Of a stretch of DNA of 64,000 bases, positions 17,888-59,600 are shown one piece after another. The notes under the pieces are model-generated. The model was not told the origin of the DNA. It did not search any database and saw only the letters and a list, made by a program, of their open reading frames with translations. This DNA comes from Demequina salsinemoris (GTDB lineage: Bacteria; Actinomycetota; Actinomycetes; Actinomycetales; Demequinaceae). A program made the translations under genes and the position numbers. Location of the stretch: positions 437,510 to 501,509 of the forward strand of contig NZ_BBQZ01000002.1 of NCBI RefSeq assembly GCF_000974805.1. The letters are read 5' to 3'. Numbering within the stretch: the first letter of the stretch is position 1; each line of letters begins with the position of its first letter.

Positions 17888-21181
<3,294 letters not shown>

Positions 21182-53486: not shown

Positions 53487-54104
53487 ATGGGTGTCAGGGA
53501 GCGCCGGCGGCAGGAGCTGATCGATGCCGCGCGCGCCCTGTTCCTCGAGCGAGGCTTCGACCAGGTGATGATCGACGACATCGCCGACAGGTGCGGCGTG
53601 ACCCGACGCACGGTGTACCGGTACTTCGCTACGCGCGACCACGTGGCCCTCGCGGTCGAGATCGACGTCCTCGAGCGCTGGGGCGTGCTGCTCGGGCAGC
53701 TCGGGGGGCACTGGTCGGGAACCGCGGCGGATCGGCTGCGCGCTGCGTTCGCGGATGTCGAGGCCCTCATCGACGAGCATGCCGATGAGGTCCGGTTCAC
53801 GCAGGTGTTCGACGTGCAGCTCGGTGGGAGCGAGAGCTCCGAGCTGAGCGCCCAGTTCCAGGACGCCGTGCTCGCGCTGCTCGCCCCGATCGTCGCGGTG
53901 CTGCGGCTGGGGGAGAGGGACGGCACGCTGAGGCTCGCCGACTCACCCGAGGTCACGGCGTCGACGCTCACCAACGCCTACCTCGGCCTCGCGCAGCGCG
54001 TGTACGGATTCGGGGAGAGGCTCGCGCAGGAGCAGTCGGTGGAGCCGCGGCGGATGCTGACCGAGCTCGGCAGGCTGTACGGCGCGGCGCTCATCCGGGA
54101 GTGA
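53487..54104 (+). CDS. TetR-family transcription regulator
   Basis: This 205-residue protein has an N-terminal HTH (residues 1-50: RRRQELIDAARALFLERGFDQVMIDDIADRCGVTRRTVYRYF) and a helical ligand domain. I choose ATG 53487 behind GGGGGAG; GTG 53481, overlapping the previous stop, is an alternative. As last gene of the operon it is a plausible autorepressor acting at the palindromes at 47260-47302. The ligand is probably galactose-related, which is inference. Confidence 0.88.
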   Translation: MGVRERRRQELIDAARALFLERGFDQVMIDDIADRCGVTRRTVYRYFATRDHVALAVEIDVLERWGVLLGQLGGHWSGTAADRLRAAFADVEALIDEHADEVRFTQVFDVQLGGSESSELSAQFQDAVLALLAPIVAVLRLGERDGTLRLADSPEVTASTLTNAYLGLAQRVYGFGERLAQEQSVEPRRMLTELGRLYGAALIRE

Positions 54105-54153
54105 TGCTCGAGTCTGCGGCGGGTTGTTCGGGCCAGGATGGCGCTACCAGGTG

Positions 54154-54171
54154 TATCTTGATGTCAAGATA
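54154..54171 (+). promoter_or_regulatory. 18 bp operator upstream of the MarR gene
   Basis: TATCTTGA, TG, TCAAGATA is a perfect 8-2-8 dyad 36 bp before the MarR start. The TTGATG at 54159-54164 could be the -35, with a poor -10 (TACAGC) 17 nt downstream. This resembles sites bound by MarR dimers, so autoregulation is likely. Confidence 0.6.
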
Positions 54172-54207
54172 GTTTCGGGATACAGCAGGGACGATGCGGG
54201 AGGCGAC

Positions 54208-54804
54208 ATGGACGAGGGCGCGGCTCAGAACGACGATGCCGTTCAGGACGACACTGCCATGCAGGACGACACAGCCGTGGACATCCAGGACGATGCGGTG
54301 GCTGGCTTCGTCGCCGAGTGGCGCCGCGAGCGGCCCGAGCTCGACACCGAACCGATCGACGTCCTGGGCCGTCTGACCAGGTACGCCAGGCTCATCGCCG
54401 TGATGAACGAGCGCGTGCTCGCGGAGCACGATCTGCAGCCCTGGGAGCTCGAGGTGCTGGAGGCGCTCACACGTCAGGGAGCGCCGTACAGGCTCACGGC
54501 GGGCGACATCGAGCGACTCACGCTGATCACCTCGGGGACCACGACGCACCGGATCGGCCGCCTGGAACGGCGCGACTACGTGAGGCGCGTCAAGGACGAG
54601 CGTGACAAGCGCATCGTCTGGGTGGTTCTGACCGATGCGGGACGCGACGCGTGCGTCGTCGGCATGGACGCGATGCTCGACGGACAGCGTCGCGCGCTCG
54701 ACATGCTCGAGCCCGGTGCCCGCGAGTCACTCCGCACGGGGCTCACCGCGCTGGGAGCGCTGCTCAGGGACGAGCCACCCACGCTGAGGAGCGCCGAGCA
54801 GTAA
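54208..54804 (+). CDS. MarR-family transcription regulator
   Basis: This 198-residue protein has an unusual acidic, repetitive N-terminus (about 1-30, runs of Asp-Asp-Ala/Thr), then a winged-helix MarR core: TRYARLIAVMNERVLAEHDL, LRLTAGDIERLTLITSGTTTHRIGRLERRDYV (recognition helix) and VKDERDKRIVWVVLTDAG (wing with Asp-x-Arg). It starts at ATG 54208 behind CGGGAGG. No target gene follows in the same direction, so it may act at a distance or only on itself. Confidence 0.88.
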   Translation: MDEGAAQNDDAVQDDTAMQDDTAVDIQDDAVAGFVAEWRRERPELDTEPIDVLGRLTRYARLIAVMNERVLAEHDLQPWELEVLEALTRQGAPYRLTAGDIERLTLITSGTTTHRIGRLERRDYVRRVKDERDKRIVWVVLTDAGRDACVVGMDAMLDGQRRALDMLEPGARESLRTGLTALGALLRDEPPTLRSAEQ

Positions 54805-54873
54805 CCCCTGGGCGATCGGCGCTTGGCCGGGCGGCTGCGAGCCCGTCCTTCTCCGCCCCTACGCATAACGCCG

Positions 54874-54887
54874 ATAATGCACATTAT
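54874..54887 (+). repeat. 14 bp AT-rich palindrome
   Basis: ATAATG, CA, CATTAT is perfect in both 6 bp arms. It lies in the AT-rich stretch just before the site array. Confidence 0.7.
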
Positions 54888-54937
54888 GTTAAGTAAGGAA
54901 CTCCTGCGCGCGTACGAGAGCGCTGCATTGATGACGA

Positions 54938-55141
54938 TTGACAGTTGAGTTGGCAACTTTGACAGTCTTGTTGGCAACTCGGCAGCCATGCGGTGAGCCC
55001 GTCCGCGAAGTTGCCCTGGGTCCCTGCGGCGGGCCCGCGCCGCGCGGACGAAGTTGCCACCTACGGTGTCAAGGATTCTCGGCCACGGTTGACATCCAAC
55101 ATGGCAGCCGCGCACAAGCCGATTGCCAACAGGACTGTCAG
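54938..55141. repeat. array of five TTGNCA-N7-TGNCAR sites
   Basis: Sites begin at 54938, 54959, 55054, 55089 and 55123. The first two are 21 bp direct tandem repeats (18 of 21 identical). The last three are spaced 35 and 34 bp. In the unit TTGACA-N7-TGGCAA orientation is forward, forward, reverse, forward, reverse. The second and fifth are an 18 bp inverted repeat with one mismatch (TGACAGTCTTGTTGGCAA, 54960-54977). Confidence 0.85.
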
Positions 55142-55144
55142 ACG

Positions 55145-55603
55145 TCACGTGGTGAAGAACGTGAGACTCGCCCTGCTCCCCTGAGCCAATGCCTCGAGCG
55201 CAACGGCCTCGTGAGGAACGAGCGGCGAAGGAAGCGCGTCGAGCGCGAACCAGCGCAGGTCCGCGCACTTGTCCGGCTCCTGGATGCTGGGAGTCCCGAC
55301 CCAGGCGCGGCACTCGAAGAACCAGTCGACGCGGTACTCGACCGCGGGACCGCCGACGCGTTGGCGCTGCATGACGGTGATCGCCGTGAGGTTCTCGGGA
55401 CGGATCCGTACCCCGAGCTCCTCGCGCGCCTCACGCACCGCGGTGTCGAGGGCGGTCTCGTCCCGCTCCCCGTGCCCCGCGGCCCCCGCCGCCCAGTGGC
55501 CGTTCATGTAGTCGGTGCCCTCGCGCAGCTGAAGCAGCACCTCATCGCCCCGCCGCAGGAGCACGTAGGAGGCTGGGATCAGCGCGTGTGTCGACCTGGC
55601 CAT
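55145..55603 (-). CDS. Nudix hydrolase
   Basis: This 152-residue protein begins ARSTHALIPASYVLLRRGDEVLLQLR and has a complete Nudix box, GHGERDETALDTAVREAREE followed by LGV, fitting G-x5-E-x7-REUXEEXGU. Family members hydrolyse nucleoside diphosphates linked to other groups; the substrate is unknown here. The start is ATG 55603. It lies 20 bp downstream of the small anchored-protein gene. Confidence 0.88.
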   Translation of the reverse strand: MARSTHALIPASYVLLRRGDEVLLQLREGTDYMNGHWAAGAAGHGERDETALDTAVREAREELGVRIRPENLTAITVMQRQRVGGPAVEYRVDWFFECRAWVGTPSIQEPDKCADLRWFALDALPSPLVPHEAVALEALAQGSRASLTFFTT

Positions 55604-55623
55604 GTCCGCAGTCGGCCCGAGGC

Positions 55624-55968
55624 TCAAGGCGCCTGAAGCTCGAGCGACTCGCCGGTCTTGCCATCGATGAGCTCGCGATCGCGCAGCGGCTCGCTGAGGG
55701 TCACCGTCTCGGTCGCGTCTCGCGAGGTGCACGAGATGAGCCCCATCCACTCCGCCCTGGCCGTGAGGGTGACCGTCGTGTCGGTCTCCTCGACGACGAC
55801 GTCGTGATCACGCGTGCAGTCATCGAACCGCACGGTGAGCTCCTGCTCGTAGTCGTAGCCGGAGACGGTCGTGATCGGCACGGGAGCGAGCGCGTTCATC
55901 TTGGGTACGTAGTAGATGGCCGCCGCGACGATCGCCACCAGAAGCAGGCGCCAAACCCACTTGCCCAT
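55624..55968 (-). CDS. small membrane-anchored protein of unknown function
   Basis: This 114-residue protein has an N-terminal membrane segment at about residues 4-21 (VWRLLLVAIVAAAIYYV) and an outside domain with two Cys (DCTRD and SCTSR) that could form a disulfide. The start ATG 55968, behind GGGGAG, is preferred to longer starts. I recognise no family. It is probably cotranscribed with the Nudix gene 20 bp downstream. Confidence 0.55.
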   Translation of the reverse strand: MGKWVWRLLLVAIVAAAIYYVPKMNALAPVPITTVSGYDYEQELTVRFDDCTRDHDVVVEETDTTVTLTARAEWMGLISCTSRDATETVTLSEPLRDRELIDGKTGESLELQAP

Positions 55969-56093
55969 GCGTGTACTCCCCGGGTCGAGCGACGATGAGC
56001 GCCACCAATCGACGGCGTCACGCCAGAGAATACGCGGCAACCAGGCAATCTGGACAGATCGACGCCCCGAGAATGCTCACGGCGTGACATACG

Positions 56094-56685: not shown

Positions 56686-59600
56686 CTACTCCCCCGTCGA
56701 CACTCCCTCGGTCTCGCCCTGAGGGGCCGGCTCGGAGGCCACCGACGGCTCCACGACGACGACCAGATCGCCTCCGACGAGCTGCTCGGTCCCGTTGACG
56801 GCCAGTCGCGTCACGGTTCCCGCGACCGATGTCGTGATCGAGGACTCCATCTTCATGGCCTCGATGACCGCCACGGTCTGACCCGCCGCGACCTTCGCCC
56901 CGACCTCGACCGAGGCCGTGACCGATCCGGTGAACGGCGCAGGGATGTGTCCGGGGTTGTTCTTGTCGGCCTTCTCCCTGGCGACCACGTCCACCTTGAC
57001 CGAGAGGTCACGGATCTGGATGGGGCGCATCGTCCCGTTGTAGGCGAAGATCGCGGTGCGCTCGCCGTGCTCATCAGGCTCGCCGAGCGCCTCGAGGGCG
57101 ACGATCATCCGCACACCAGGGGCGACGTCGACGTTCGCCTCCTCACCGCTGCCGACCGTGAGGCCGTACAGGTAGTGGTACGTGTCGATCACGGAGATGT
57201 CGCCGTACGTCTCGATCGCGTCGTCGAAGTCCTTCGCGGGACCGGCGAACAGCATGTGGTTGAGCTTGCGCTGACGGTCGGGGCCCGGGTAGCGCAGCAG
57301 CGCGCGGTCCTCTTCCGTGAGCTCGGGCTTGGGCTTGGGCTCCGCGCGGCCCTCGAGGGCCTTGGTGCGGAAGGGCTCCGGCCAGCCGCCGGGCGGGTCG
57401 CCCAGGTCGCCGCGCAGGAAGCCGATCACCGAGTCGGGGACGTCGTACTTGCCGGGGTTCTCGGCGAAGTCAGCGGGATCGGCGTCGTTCGCGACGAGGT
57501 GCAGGGCGAGGTCGCCGACCACCTTGGACGACGGCGTCACCTTGACCAGGTGACCCAGGATCCTGTCCGCGGCCGCGTACATGTCCTCGATCGCCTCGAA
57601 GCGATCCGCGAGGCCGAGCGAGATCGCCTGCTGACGCAGGTTGGACAGCTGACCACCCGGGATCTCGTGACGGTAGACGCGGCCGGTCGGTCCAGGGAGG
57701 CCCGACTCGAACGGCGCGTACAGGCGGCGCACGGCCTCCCAGTACGGCTCGAGGTCCTGCGCCGCCTGGAGCGAGAGCCCCGTGTCGCGCGTCGTGTGCT
57801 CGAGGGCCGCGATGAGCGCCGACATCGGAGGCTGCGACGTCGTGCCGGCCATGGCTGCGTTCGCGACGTCCACGGCGTCCACGCCCGCCTCGGCGGCCGA
57901 CAGCAACGTGCCGAGCTGTCCGCCCGCGGTGTCGTGCGTGTGCAGGTGGATCGGCAGGTCGAAGCGCTTGCGCAGCTCCGAGACGAGGACGTACGCGGCG
58001 GCCGGCCGCAGCAGGCCCGCCATGTCCTTGATCGCGAGGATGTGCGCGCCCGCGTCCACGAGCTGGTCGGCCAGCTTGAGATAGTAGTCGAGGGTGTAGA
58101 GCTTCTCCTCCGGGTCGATCATGTTGCCCGTGTAGCACAGCGTCGCCTCGGCGACCGCCTGACCCGTGCCGCGCACGGCCTCGATCGCCGGACGCATCTG
58201 CTCGACGTCGTTGAGCGCGTCGAAGATGCGGAAGATGTCGATGCCGGTCTCCGTGGCCTCCTCGACGAACGCGTGGGCGACCTCGTCGGGGTACGGCGTG
58301 TAGCCGACCGTGTTGCGACCGCGCAGCAGCATCTGCAGGGCGATGTTCGGCATCGCCTCGCGCAGCCGGGCGAGACGCAGCCACGGGTCCTCCGAGAGGA
58401 AGCGCATGGACACGTCGTACGTCGCGCCGCCCCAGCACTCGACCGAGAACAGGTTGGGCGTCATGCGAGCGGTGTGTCCCGCCGCTGCCAGAAGGTCGAA
58501 GGTGCGCACGCGCGTGGCGAGCAGCGACTGGTGCGCGTCGCGCATCGTCGTCTCGGTGATGGCGAGCGCCTCCTGCTCGCGCAGCGCGCGGGCGAAGCCC
58601 TCGGGGCCCTTCTCGAGCAGCAGCTGGCGCGTGCCCGCGGGCGGCTCGGCGTCCAGGTCCAGCGCGGGGAGCTTGTCCCCCGGGCGCAGCACCGTCTCGC
58701 CGTGCGCGCCGTTGGGCTTGTTCACCGTGACGTGGCCGAGGAACTGGAGGATCTTGGTCGAACGAGCCTTCTCCTCGCCCACGTCCAGCAGGTACGGCCG
58801 CTGGTCGATGAAGGAGGTCGTGACGCCGCCCTCACGGAAGTCCGGGTCCTCGAGGACAGCGCGCAGGAAGCGGATGTTGTTGGTGACGCCGCGGATGCGG
58901 AACTCGGCGAGCGCACGGGAGGCGCGACGCGCGGCCTGGTCGAAGTCGTGGCCGCGGCAGATCAGCTTGACCAGCATCGAGTCGAAGTGGCCCAGGATGC
59001 GGTTACCCGCCATGCCGGTCGCGCCGTCGAGTCGGATGCCGGCGCCGCCGGGCGAACGGTAGGCGATGATGCGGCCGGTGTCAGGAAGGAAGCCGTTCGT
59101 GGGGTCCTCGGTCGTGATGCGCGTCTGGATGGCGTATCCGCGAACCTCGATCGCCTCCTGACGGATGCCGATCTCCTCGAGCGTCTCCCCTGCCGCGATG
59201 CGCATCTGGGTGCTCACGAGGTCGACGTCGGTGACCTCCTCGGTGATCGTGTGCTCGACCTGGATGCGCGGGTTCATCTCGATGAACACGTGCTGGCCGG
59301 CACGCTCGCCCTCGGTCGCGACCAGGAACTCCACGGTTCCGGCGTTGACGTAGCCGAGCGACTTCGCGAACTTCACCGCGTCGGCGCACAGCGCCTCGCG
59401 GATCGCGGGGTCGAGGTTGGGCGCCGGAGCGATCTCGATCACCTTCTGGTGACGGCGCTGCACCGAGCAGTCGCGCTCATACAGATGGACGACGTTGCCC
59501 TCGCGGTCGGCGACGATCTGCACCTCGATGTGGCGCGGGCCGAGCACCGCCTGCTCGAGGAAGACCGTCGGGTCGCCGAAGGCGTTCTGGGCCTCGCGCA

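What the first reader, a model, noticed from the sequence alone, without database searches (positions are those of the whole stretch)
54938..55141. Array of five TTGNCA-N7-TGNCAR sites between convergent genes
Five 19 bp dyad-like sites (starts 54938, 54959, 55054, 55089, 55123) sit within 204 bp. Two are 21 bp tandem copies and three are spaced 34-35 bp. The gap lies between two 3' ends, so no flanking gene needs an operator there. Possible explanations are a multi-site binding locus for a dimeric protein (nucleoid, segregation or replication), the ends of a short non-autonomous mobile element (sites 2 and 5 form an 18 bp inverted repeat), or an unannotated RNA promoter. I know no described system with this pattern.
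Basis: partly seen in the sequence, partly recalled or inferred. Interest (0 to 1): 0.78.

Follow-up and report, generated by a model that had tools for sequence, protein, structure and literature searches.

The report
Five-site binding array beside dif
Five copies of a small two-fold-symmetric DNA motif sit right next to the site where this bacterium separates its finished chromosomes; they look like docking sites for an unknown protein, and we found the cluster in this one species only.

Summary
The array is real: five TTGNCA-N7-TGNCAR sites at the stated coordinates, 0.04 matches expected in the window, no exact match elsewhere in the 3.2-Mb genome. Window 54867-54894, 43 bp left of site 1, is the chromosome-dimer-resolution site dif: 26 of 28 bases match the Frankia dif printed in PMC3025954, 40 of 44 genus genomes have such a site, and a strongly polar octamer switches direction there. 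So the array lies at the replication terminus, on the XerD side of dif. It is not conserved: none of 37 other dif loci has a similar site within 700 bp; the one relative with the same Nudix neighbour has about 194 bp less DNA and no array; the paired-site pattern occurs in 1 of 396 genomes of the order. Small transposon, promoter and MarR operator are disfavoured. Best reading: a species-specific ~200-bp block of sites for a dimeric protein, most likely left by or borrowed from an element that used dif; filamentous-phage-like prophages do insert at dif in this genus. The binder is unknown.

The parts
54867..54894 (+). dif site (XerC arm ACGCCGATAA, centre TGCACA, XerD arm TTATGTTAAGT; arm limits by analogy)
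   Evidence: dif-like site in 40 of 44 genus genomes; 26 of 28 identical to F. alni dif as printed
54938..54956 (+). site 1 TTGACAGTTGAGTTGGCAA
54959..54977 (+). site 2 TTGACAGTCTTGTTGGCAA, 21-bp tandem with site 1
55006..55015 (-). isolated half-site (GTTGCC within CGAAGTTGCC, repeated at 55049-55058)
   Evidence: family D5; reading as half-site is inference
55054..55072 (-). site 3, minus strand TTGACACCGTAGGTGGCAA
55089..55107 (+). site 4 TTGACATCCAACATGGCAG
55123..55141 (-). site 5, minus strand CTGACAGTCCTGTTGGCAA, inverted to site 2
54932..55147 (.). outer limits of the 25-nt imperfect inverted repeat that encloses the array
   Evidence: I1; folds (z -3.66 as DNA, -3.93 as RNA)
54208..54804 (+). 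MarR-family regulator, ends 62 bp left of dif
   Evidence: a MarR homologue (one of them partial) in 15 of 34 other genus dif loci
55145..55603 (-). Nudix hydrolase, convergent
   Evidence: 81% identical in G004
53909..53915 (+). last GGGGGAG left of dif, pointing right
56689..56695 (-). first GGGGGAG right of dif, pointing left

Best explanation
The array is a roughly 200-bp block of five sites for a dimeric DNA-binding protein, placed 43 to 247 bp from dif on its XerD side at the replication terminus. Shown: the sites, dif, the polarity switch, the absence of the array from the relatives examined, and about 194 bp less DNA between dif and the Nudix gene in G004. Inferred: the block was gained by this species with, or as a scar of, an element that recombined at or beside dif (a phage or plasmid with a Xer site and its own control region). 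Its protein would assemble on the five dyads as a complex next to the recombination core, acting on that element's control or excision. The binder is not identified; whether the block still works is open.
For: Array far beyond chance and the only cluster of four or more like dyads with A/T in its fixed bases in 403,991 bases sampled around dif. dif identified; terminus supported by octamer polarity and, more weakly, GC skew. G004 keeps TetR, MarR, dif, Nudix and pyruvate carboxylase (85, 80, -, 81 and 97% of the parts aligned) but has no array. dif is used by mobile elements in this genus: inserts of 8.1, 5.9 and 8.0 kb lie between a half-dif and the full dif in G018, G004 and G064; Zot- and Rep-like genes are in the first two, and a Zot-like gene and relatives of three G018 prophage proteins in the third. 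The window's XerD arm, TTATGTTAAG, is shared by 1 of 34 other genus loci aligned, as expected if the right half of dif was exchanged.
Against: One dif and no half-dif with up to 2 mismatches in the window (two scattered ones with 3, near 20535 and 46284), one XerC-half in the genome with up to 1 mismatch, and no Zot match in this genome. In G018, G004 and G064 the insert lies on the XerC side of the full dif, the array on the XerD side. None of the loci with those inserts holds a site of this motif with up to one mismatch. The DNA between MarR and Nudix does not align with G004 apart from dif, so the odd XerD arm and unlike flank could be drift, and loss in G004 is not excluded. No convincing similar sequence in the phage or plasmid collections (best E 0.3 and 0.2).
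Confidence: 0.4

Rival explanations
1. A host accessory locus for dif: a dimeric protein wraps or marks the DNA beside dif and steers XerCD recombination or terminus positioning, as the ~180-bp accessory sequences do at plasmid cer.
For: Position 43 bp from dif in the 2.8-kb interval free of the polar heptamer; length of 204 bp close to the ~180-bp accessory sequences of cer (PMC5357621, passages); five like dyads, the first pair exactly 21 bp apart.
Against: Absent within 700 bp of dif in 37 of 37 other loci compared, 34 of them from the genus, although dif is conserved; a core chromosome function should not be confined to one species. cer needs PepA and ArgR; not tested here.
Confidence: 0.2
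2. A small non-autonomous transposable element whose ends carry two or three transposase sites each; the inverted set (sites 1, 2 forward; 3, 5 reverse) forms its terminal repeats.
For: 25-nt inverted repeat ending TGACG...CGTCA, 80%; whole segment folds into one long hairpin, z -3.93; about 194 bp more than in G004.
Against: No target duplication (ATTGA left, CGTGG right of 54932-55147); no second copy in the own genome or in 58 relatives: of 29 matches in relatives 27 overlap dif and 2 cover only query 179-245, the G+C-rich stretch; paired sites in 1 of 396 genomes of the order; the 8 genome contigs matches come from unrelated taxa by their titles.
Confidence: 0.15
3. Operator array of an ordinary transcription factor, stranded or serving an unannotated transcript.
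For: Dyad geometry 6-N7-6 suits a dimeric regulator; the HspR box (MerR family, recalled) is printed as CTTGAGT-N7-ACTCAAG (term matched in 3 papers, listing and abstract starts only).
Against: Both flanking genes end here; 0 sigma-70-like sites in 54100-55700; no Rfam match near threshold; no other site cluster in the genome. The MarR gene has its own, different palindrome at 54154-54171 (by eye).
Confidence: 0.2

Closest known systems
cer/psi accessory sequences of plasmid Xer sites
   Same: About 200 bp of presumed protein-binding DNA directly beside a XerC/XerD core
   Different: Core here is chromosomal dif; sites are repeated dyads; binder unknown. PepA/ArgR sites not tested
[quoted passage not shown]
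   Same: Location at dif; real inserts at dif in three sister species, with intact XerC arm and centre at the far end
   Different: Window has one dif, no good half-dif and this genome no Zot match; array on the other side of dif
MatP/matS terminus organisation
   Same: Dyad sites at the terminus
   Different: matS is another sequence, scattered over the terminus (recalled); 3 one-mismatch matches in the window, 1.69 expected, none at the array
HspR HAIR boxes (MerR family)
   Same: Two arms with 7-bp spacer
   Different: Different arm sequence; 1 match in the window with 3 mismatches, not at the array

Membership tests
dif (XerCD chromosome dimer resolution site) | 28-bp two-arm core matching the phylum's dif | tested here: met
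   26 of 28 to F. alni dif as printed in PMC3025954. That paper calls the F. alni site suggested, not experimentally confirmed
dif (XerCD chromosome dimer resolution site) | single copy where polar motifs and GC skew change sign | tested here: met
   the octamer was chosen as the most polar, so its p-value is nominal; the GC skew changes sign on average but four tiles from 392 to 477 kb, left of dif, already lie at or below zero
Xer accessory sequences (cer/psi type) | array next to a Xer core | tested here: met
   43 bp between dif and site 1
Xer accessory sequences (cer/psi type) | bound by PepA with ArgR or ArcA and required for recombination | not testable with these tools
   needs binding and recombination assays
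IMEX / filamentous prophage at dif | second dif or half-dif at the far end | tested here: not met
   none with up to 2 mismatches in the window
IMEX / filamentous prophage at dif | element genes (Zot-like ATPase) | tested here: not met
   none in G000; 3 of 44 genus genomes match (G064, G018, G030); the weak one of G004 was missed there
MITE | terminal inverted repeats | tested here: met
   25 nt, 80%
MITE | target duplication | tested here: not met
   flanks of 54932-55147
MITE | more than one copy | tested here: not met
matS | GTGACRNYGTCAC (consensus recalled) | tested here: not met
HspR HAIR | CTTGAGT-N7-ACTCAAG | tested here: not met

The most novel reading that the evidence does not exclude
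A dif with its own cer-like accessory array: a dimeric protein, not yet known, assembles on five dyads 43-247 bp from the XerD arm and gives chromosome or element recombination at dif a second layer of control beside FtsK, in one actinobacterial lineage.
Probability: 0.15. Interest if true: 0.75.

Novelty: new variant of a known kind. Interest (0 to 1): 0.42.

Why it matters
Chromosomal dif is generally taken to need only XerC, XerD and FtsK (recalled), while plasmid Xer sites carry accessory DNA. A dense protein-binding array against a chromosomal dif would blur that line, or record how a mobile element left its control region at the terminus. The locus is small and can be tested directly.

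Tried and rejected
MarR as binder: the palindrome in front of the marR gene (54154-54171, by eye) has arms 2 bp apart, not 7, and MarR homologues beside dif in 15 of 34 other genus loci go without an array. Chance: rejected.

Dyad clusters in general: one search listed 4,721 clusters of all-G/C motifs, up to 251 in one tile; the recount without N (475 N bases) gives 166, up to 7. These G+C-only clusters were set aside as expected in 70% G+C DNA; they were not shuffled. In one search, G+C-only motifs reach 7 sites per 250-bp tile in the window, more than the array's 5.

Relatives with other arrays beside dif: of 39 loci tested, only L018 and L050 have as many similar 19-mers right of dif as the window (24, 19 and 16 pairs). 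By eye they look like tandem codon-like repeats; not followed.

Of 157 loci (L057-L213), 9 have three or more sites with up to one mismatch within 300 bp: three are copies of the window (L090, L212, L213) and six are L057, L058, L059, L060, L063, L186 (the fuzzy count had not listed L058 and L063). L057 and L186 were read and lie in long coding frames; L060 has the same sites as L057. L058 looks like a simple tandem repeat; L058, L059 and L063 were not read further. Phage and plasmid DNA searches gave E of 0.2 or worse.

A remnant XerD arm at site 5 (TGTCAG) was considered; the genus flank consensus is too weak to judge.

Papers: the exact motif strings found 8 papers, all by TTGNCA alone, 7 of 8 on Corynebacterium by title or abstract start; one search found 0 and one search found 1 (listing only). 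PMC3025954, PMC5357621 and PMC4246890 were seen as passages. No claim is made that dif-inserted inoviruses of actinobacteria are unpublished; some searches were seen as listings only, apart from the three papers just named.

Full report
What was checked. The pattern TTGNCA-N7-TGNCAR has five places in the window, all at the coordinates given, with 0.04 expected. Shuffling the 250-bp segment 20,000 times never gave more than one site. The exact pattern is found nowhere else in the 3.2-Mb genome. Read with its asymmetry (TTGACA...TGGCAA), sites 1, 2 and 4 face right and 3 and 5 face left, so the block is partly inverted around a G+C-rich centre; the outermost arms give a 25-nt, 80% inverted repeat and the strand folds better than its shuffles (z -3.66 as DNA; -3.93 as RNA). 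An array of near-palindromes will do this anyway, so the fold is weak evidence for an RNA.

The missed landmark. A DNA search of the own genome and 58 relatives gave 29 matches in 28 relatives; 27 of the 29 overlap one short stretch left of the sites. That stretch is dif: AACGCCGATAATGCACATTATGTTAAGT at 54867-54894, 26 of 28 identical to the Frankia alni dif printed in PMC3025954 (passages read; recount). With up to three mismatches it is found once in each of 40 of 44 genus genomes, the own one included. On the same contig, 17 stretches of about 20 kb plus the window show mean GC skew of +0.018 left and -0.015 right; tiles vary, four tiles from 392 to 477 kb left of dif are at or below zero, and right of dif the 9-kb tile next to it and the tile at 641 kb are positive. 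The octamer CGGGGGAG, picked as the most polar one, points to dif in 83 of 85 copies; its core GGGGGAG points to dif in 20 of 21 copies in the window and in 55 of 55 copies in seven relatives' dif loci. The last copies on either side are at 53909 and 56689, so the switch brackets dif and the array. This is a terminus locus.

Conservation. The dif loci of 34 of the 43 other genus genomes and 3 of other families were compared: none has a site with up to one mismatch within 700 bp of dif (recounted without fuzzy matching). One genus genome, G005, has one exact TTGACA-N7-TGGCAA site, on a contig other than its dif contig. The double-site pattern occurs in 1 of 396 genomes of the order, this one. 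Only G004 shares the Nudix gene (2 of 44 with the own, E up to 1e-20). It keeps the order TetR, MarR, dif, Nudix, pyruvate carboxylase (named by eye) at 85, 80, -, 81 and 97% of the parts aligned, yet has no array and about 194 bp less between dif and the homologous end of Nudix. G004 is the closest of the loci compared; the genus was not ranked as a whole. Homology stops at 54798 and resumes at 55176, with only dif aligning between, so this interval diverges quickly, and gain is likelier than, but not proved over, loss.

dif as a target in this genus. G018 has an 8.1-kb insert between a half-dif (XerC arm and centre) and the full dif, with Zot-like (PF05707, E 4.7e-7) and replication-protein (PF23343, E 3.6e-9) genes; G004 has a 5.9-kb insert between MarR and dif with Rep_trans (PF02486, E 9.4e-14) and a Zot-like protein below the Pfam cut-off. 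G064 has two such half-sites 8.0 kb apart, the second in its dif, and a Zot-like gene and relatives of three G018 prophage proteins between them. An intact XerC arm and centre with a degenerate XerD arm is as described for TLC-phi and GGI (PMC5357621 and PMC4246890, passages). These inserts lie on the XerC side; the array lies on the XerD side, and G000 has no Zot match and its window no half-dif with up to two mismatches. The window's XerD arm (TTATGTTAAG) is shared with 1 of 34 aligned loci, G022.

How it most likely works. Five dyads with 13 bp between half-site centres, the first two exactly 21 bp apart, are the anatomy of a cooperative dimer-binding array (inference). Because both neighbours end here and no sigma-70-like site was found, gene control is not its obvious job. 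Because it is confined to one species as far as seen, a core terminus function is unlikely. I therefore favour a control or accessory region brought by an element that recombined at or beside dif (0.4), ahead of a host accessory site (0.2), a stranded operator (0.2) and a small transposon (0.15). The size and place resemble the ~180-bp accessory sequences of cer (PMC5357621), but that is a resemblance, not membership.

Limits. No binder, no expression data, one genome per species, no metagenome search, exact-pattern scans that miss diverged arrays. Taxon names are withheld; that this is an actinobacterium is inferred from dif.

Noticed in passing
L071 2485-10618; L072 8404-14308 (minus); L081 4526-12520: Filamentous-phage-like prophages (Zot- and Rep-like genes) inserted at dif in G018, G004 and G064: apparent dif-using inoviruses in a high-G+C, probably actinobacterial genus.
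   Followed up: partly
window 53909, 56689; contig C19: CGGGGGAG/GGGGGAG behaves like an FtsK-orienting sequence of this genus, switching polarity at dif.
   Followed up: partly
L082 (G007:C36:42937 and 44816): Two copies of the XerC-arm half of dif 1.9 kb apart at a contig end: possibly another dif-integrated element.
   Followed up: no
window 54208-54804: A MarR-family homologue lies in the fetched locus around dif in 15 of 34 other genus genomes (one partial): a frequent neighbour of dif.
   Followed up: no
L018 and L050, right of dif: Dense short repeats, by eye tandem codon-like, directly right of dif in two relatives.
   Followed up: no
L063 867-921: Three sites of this motif (one with a mismatch) within 55 bp in a Bacteriovoracaceae contig; surroundings not read.
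   Followed up: no
window 55624-55974: The small gene next to Nudix is only 39% identical in G004 while its neighbours are 75-97%.
   Followed up: no
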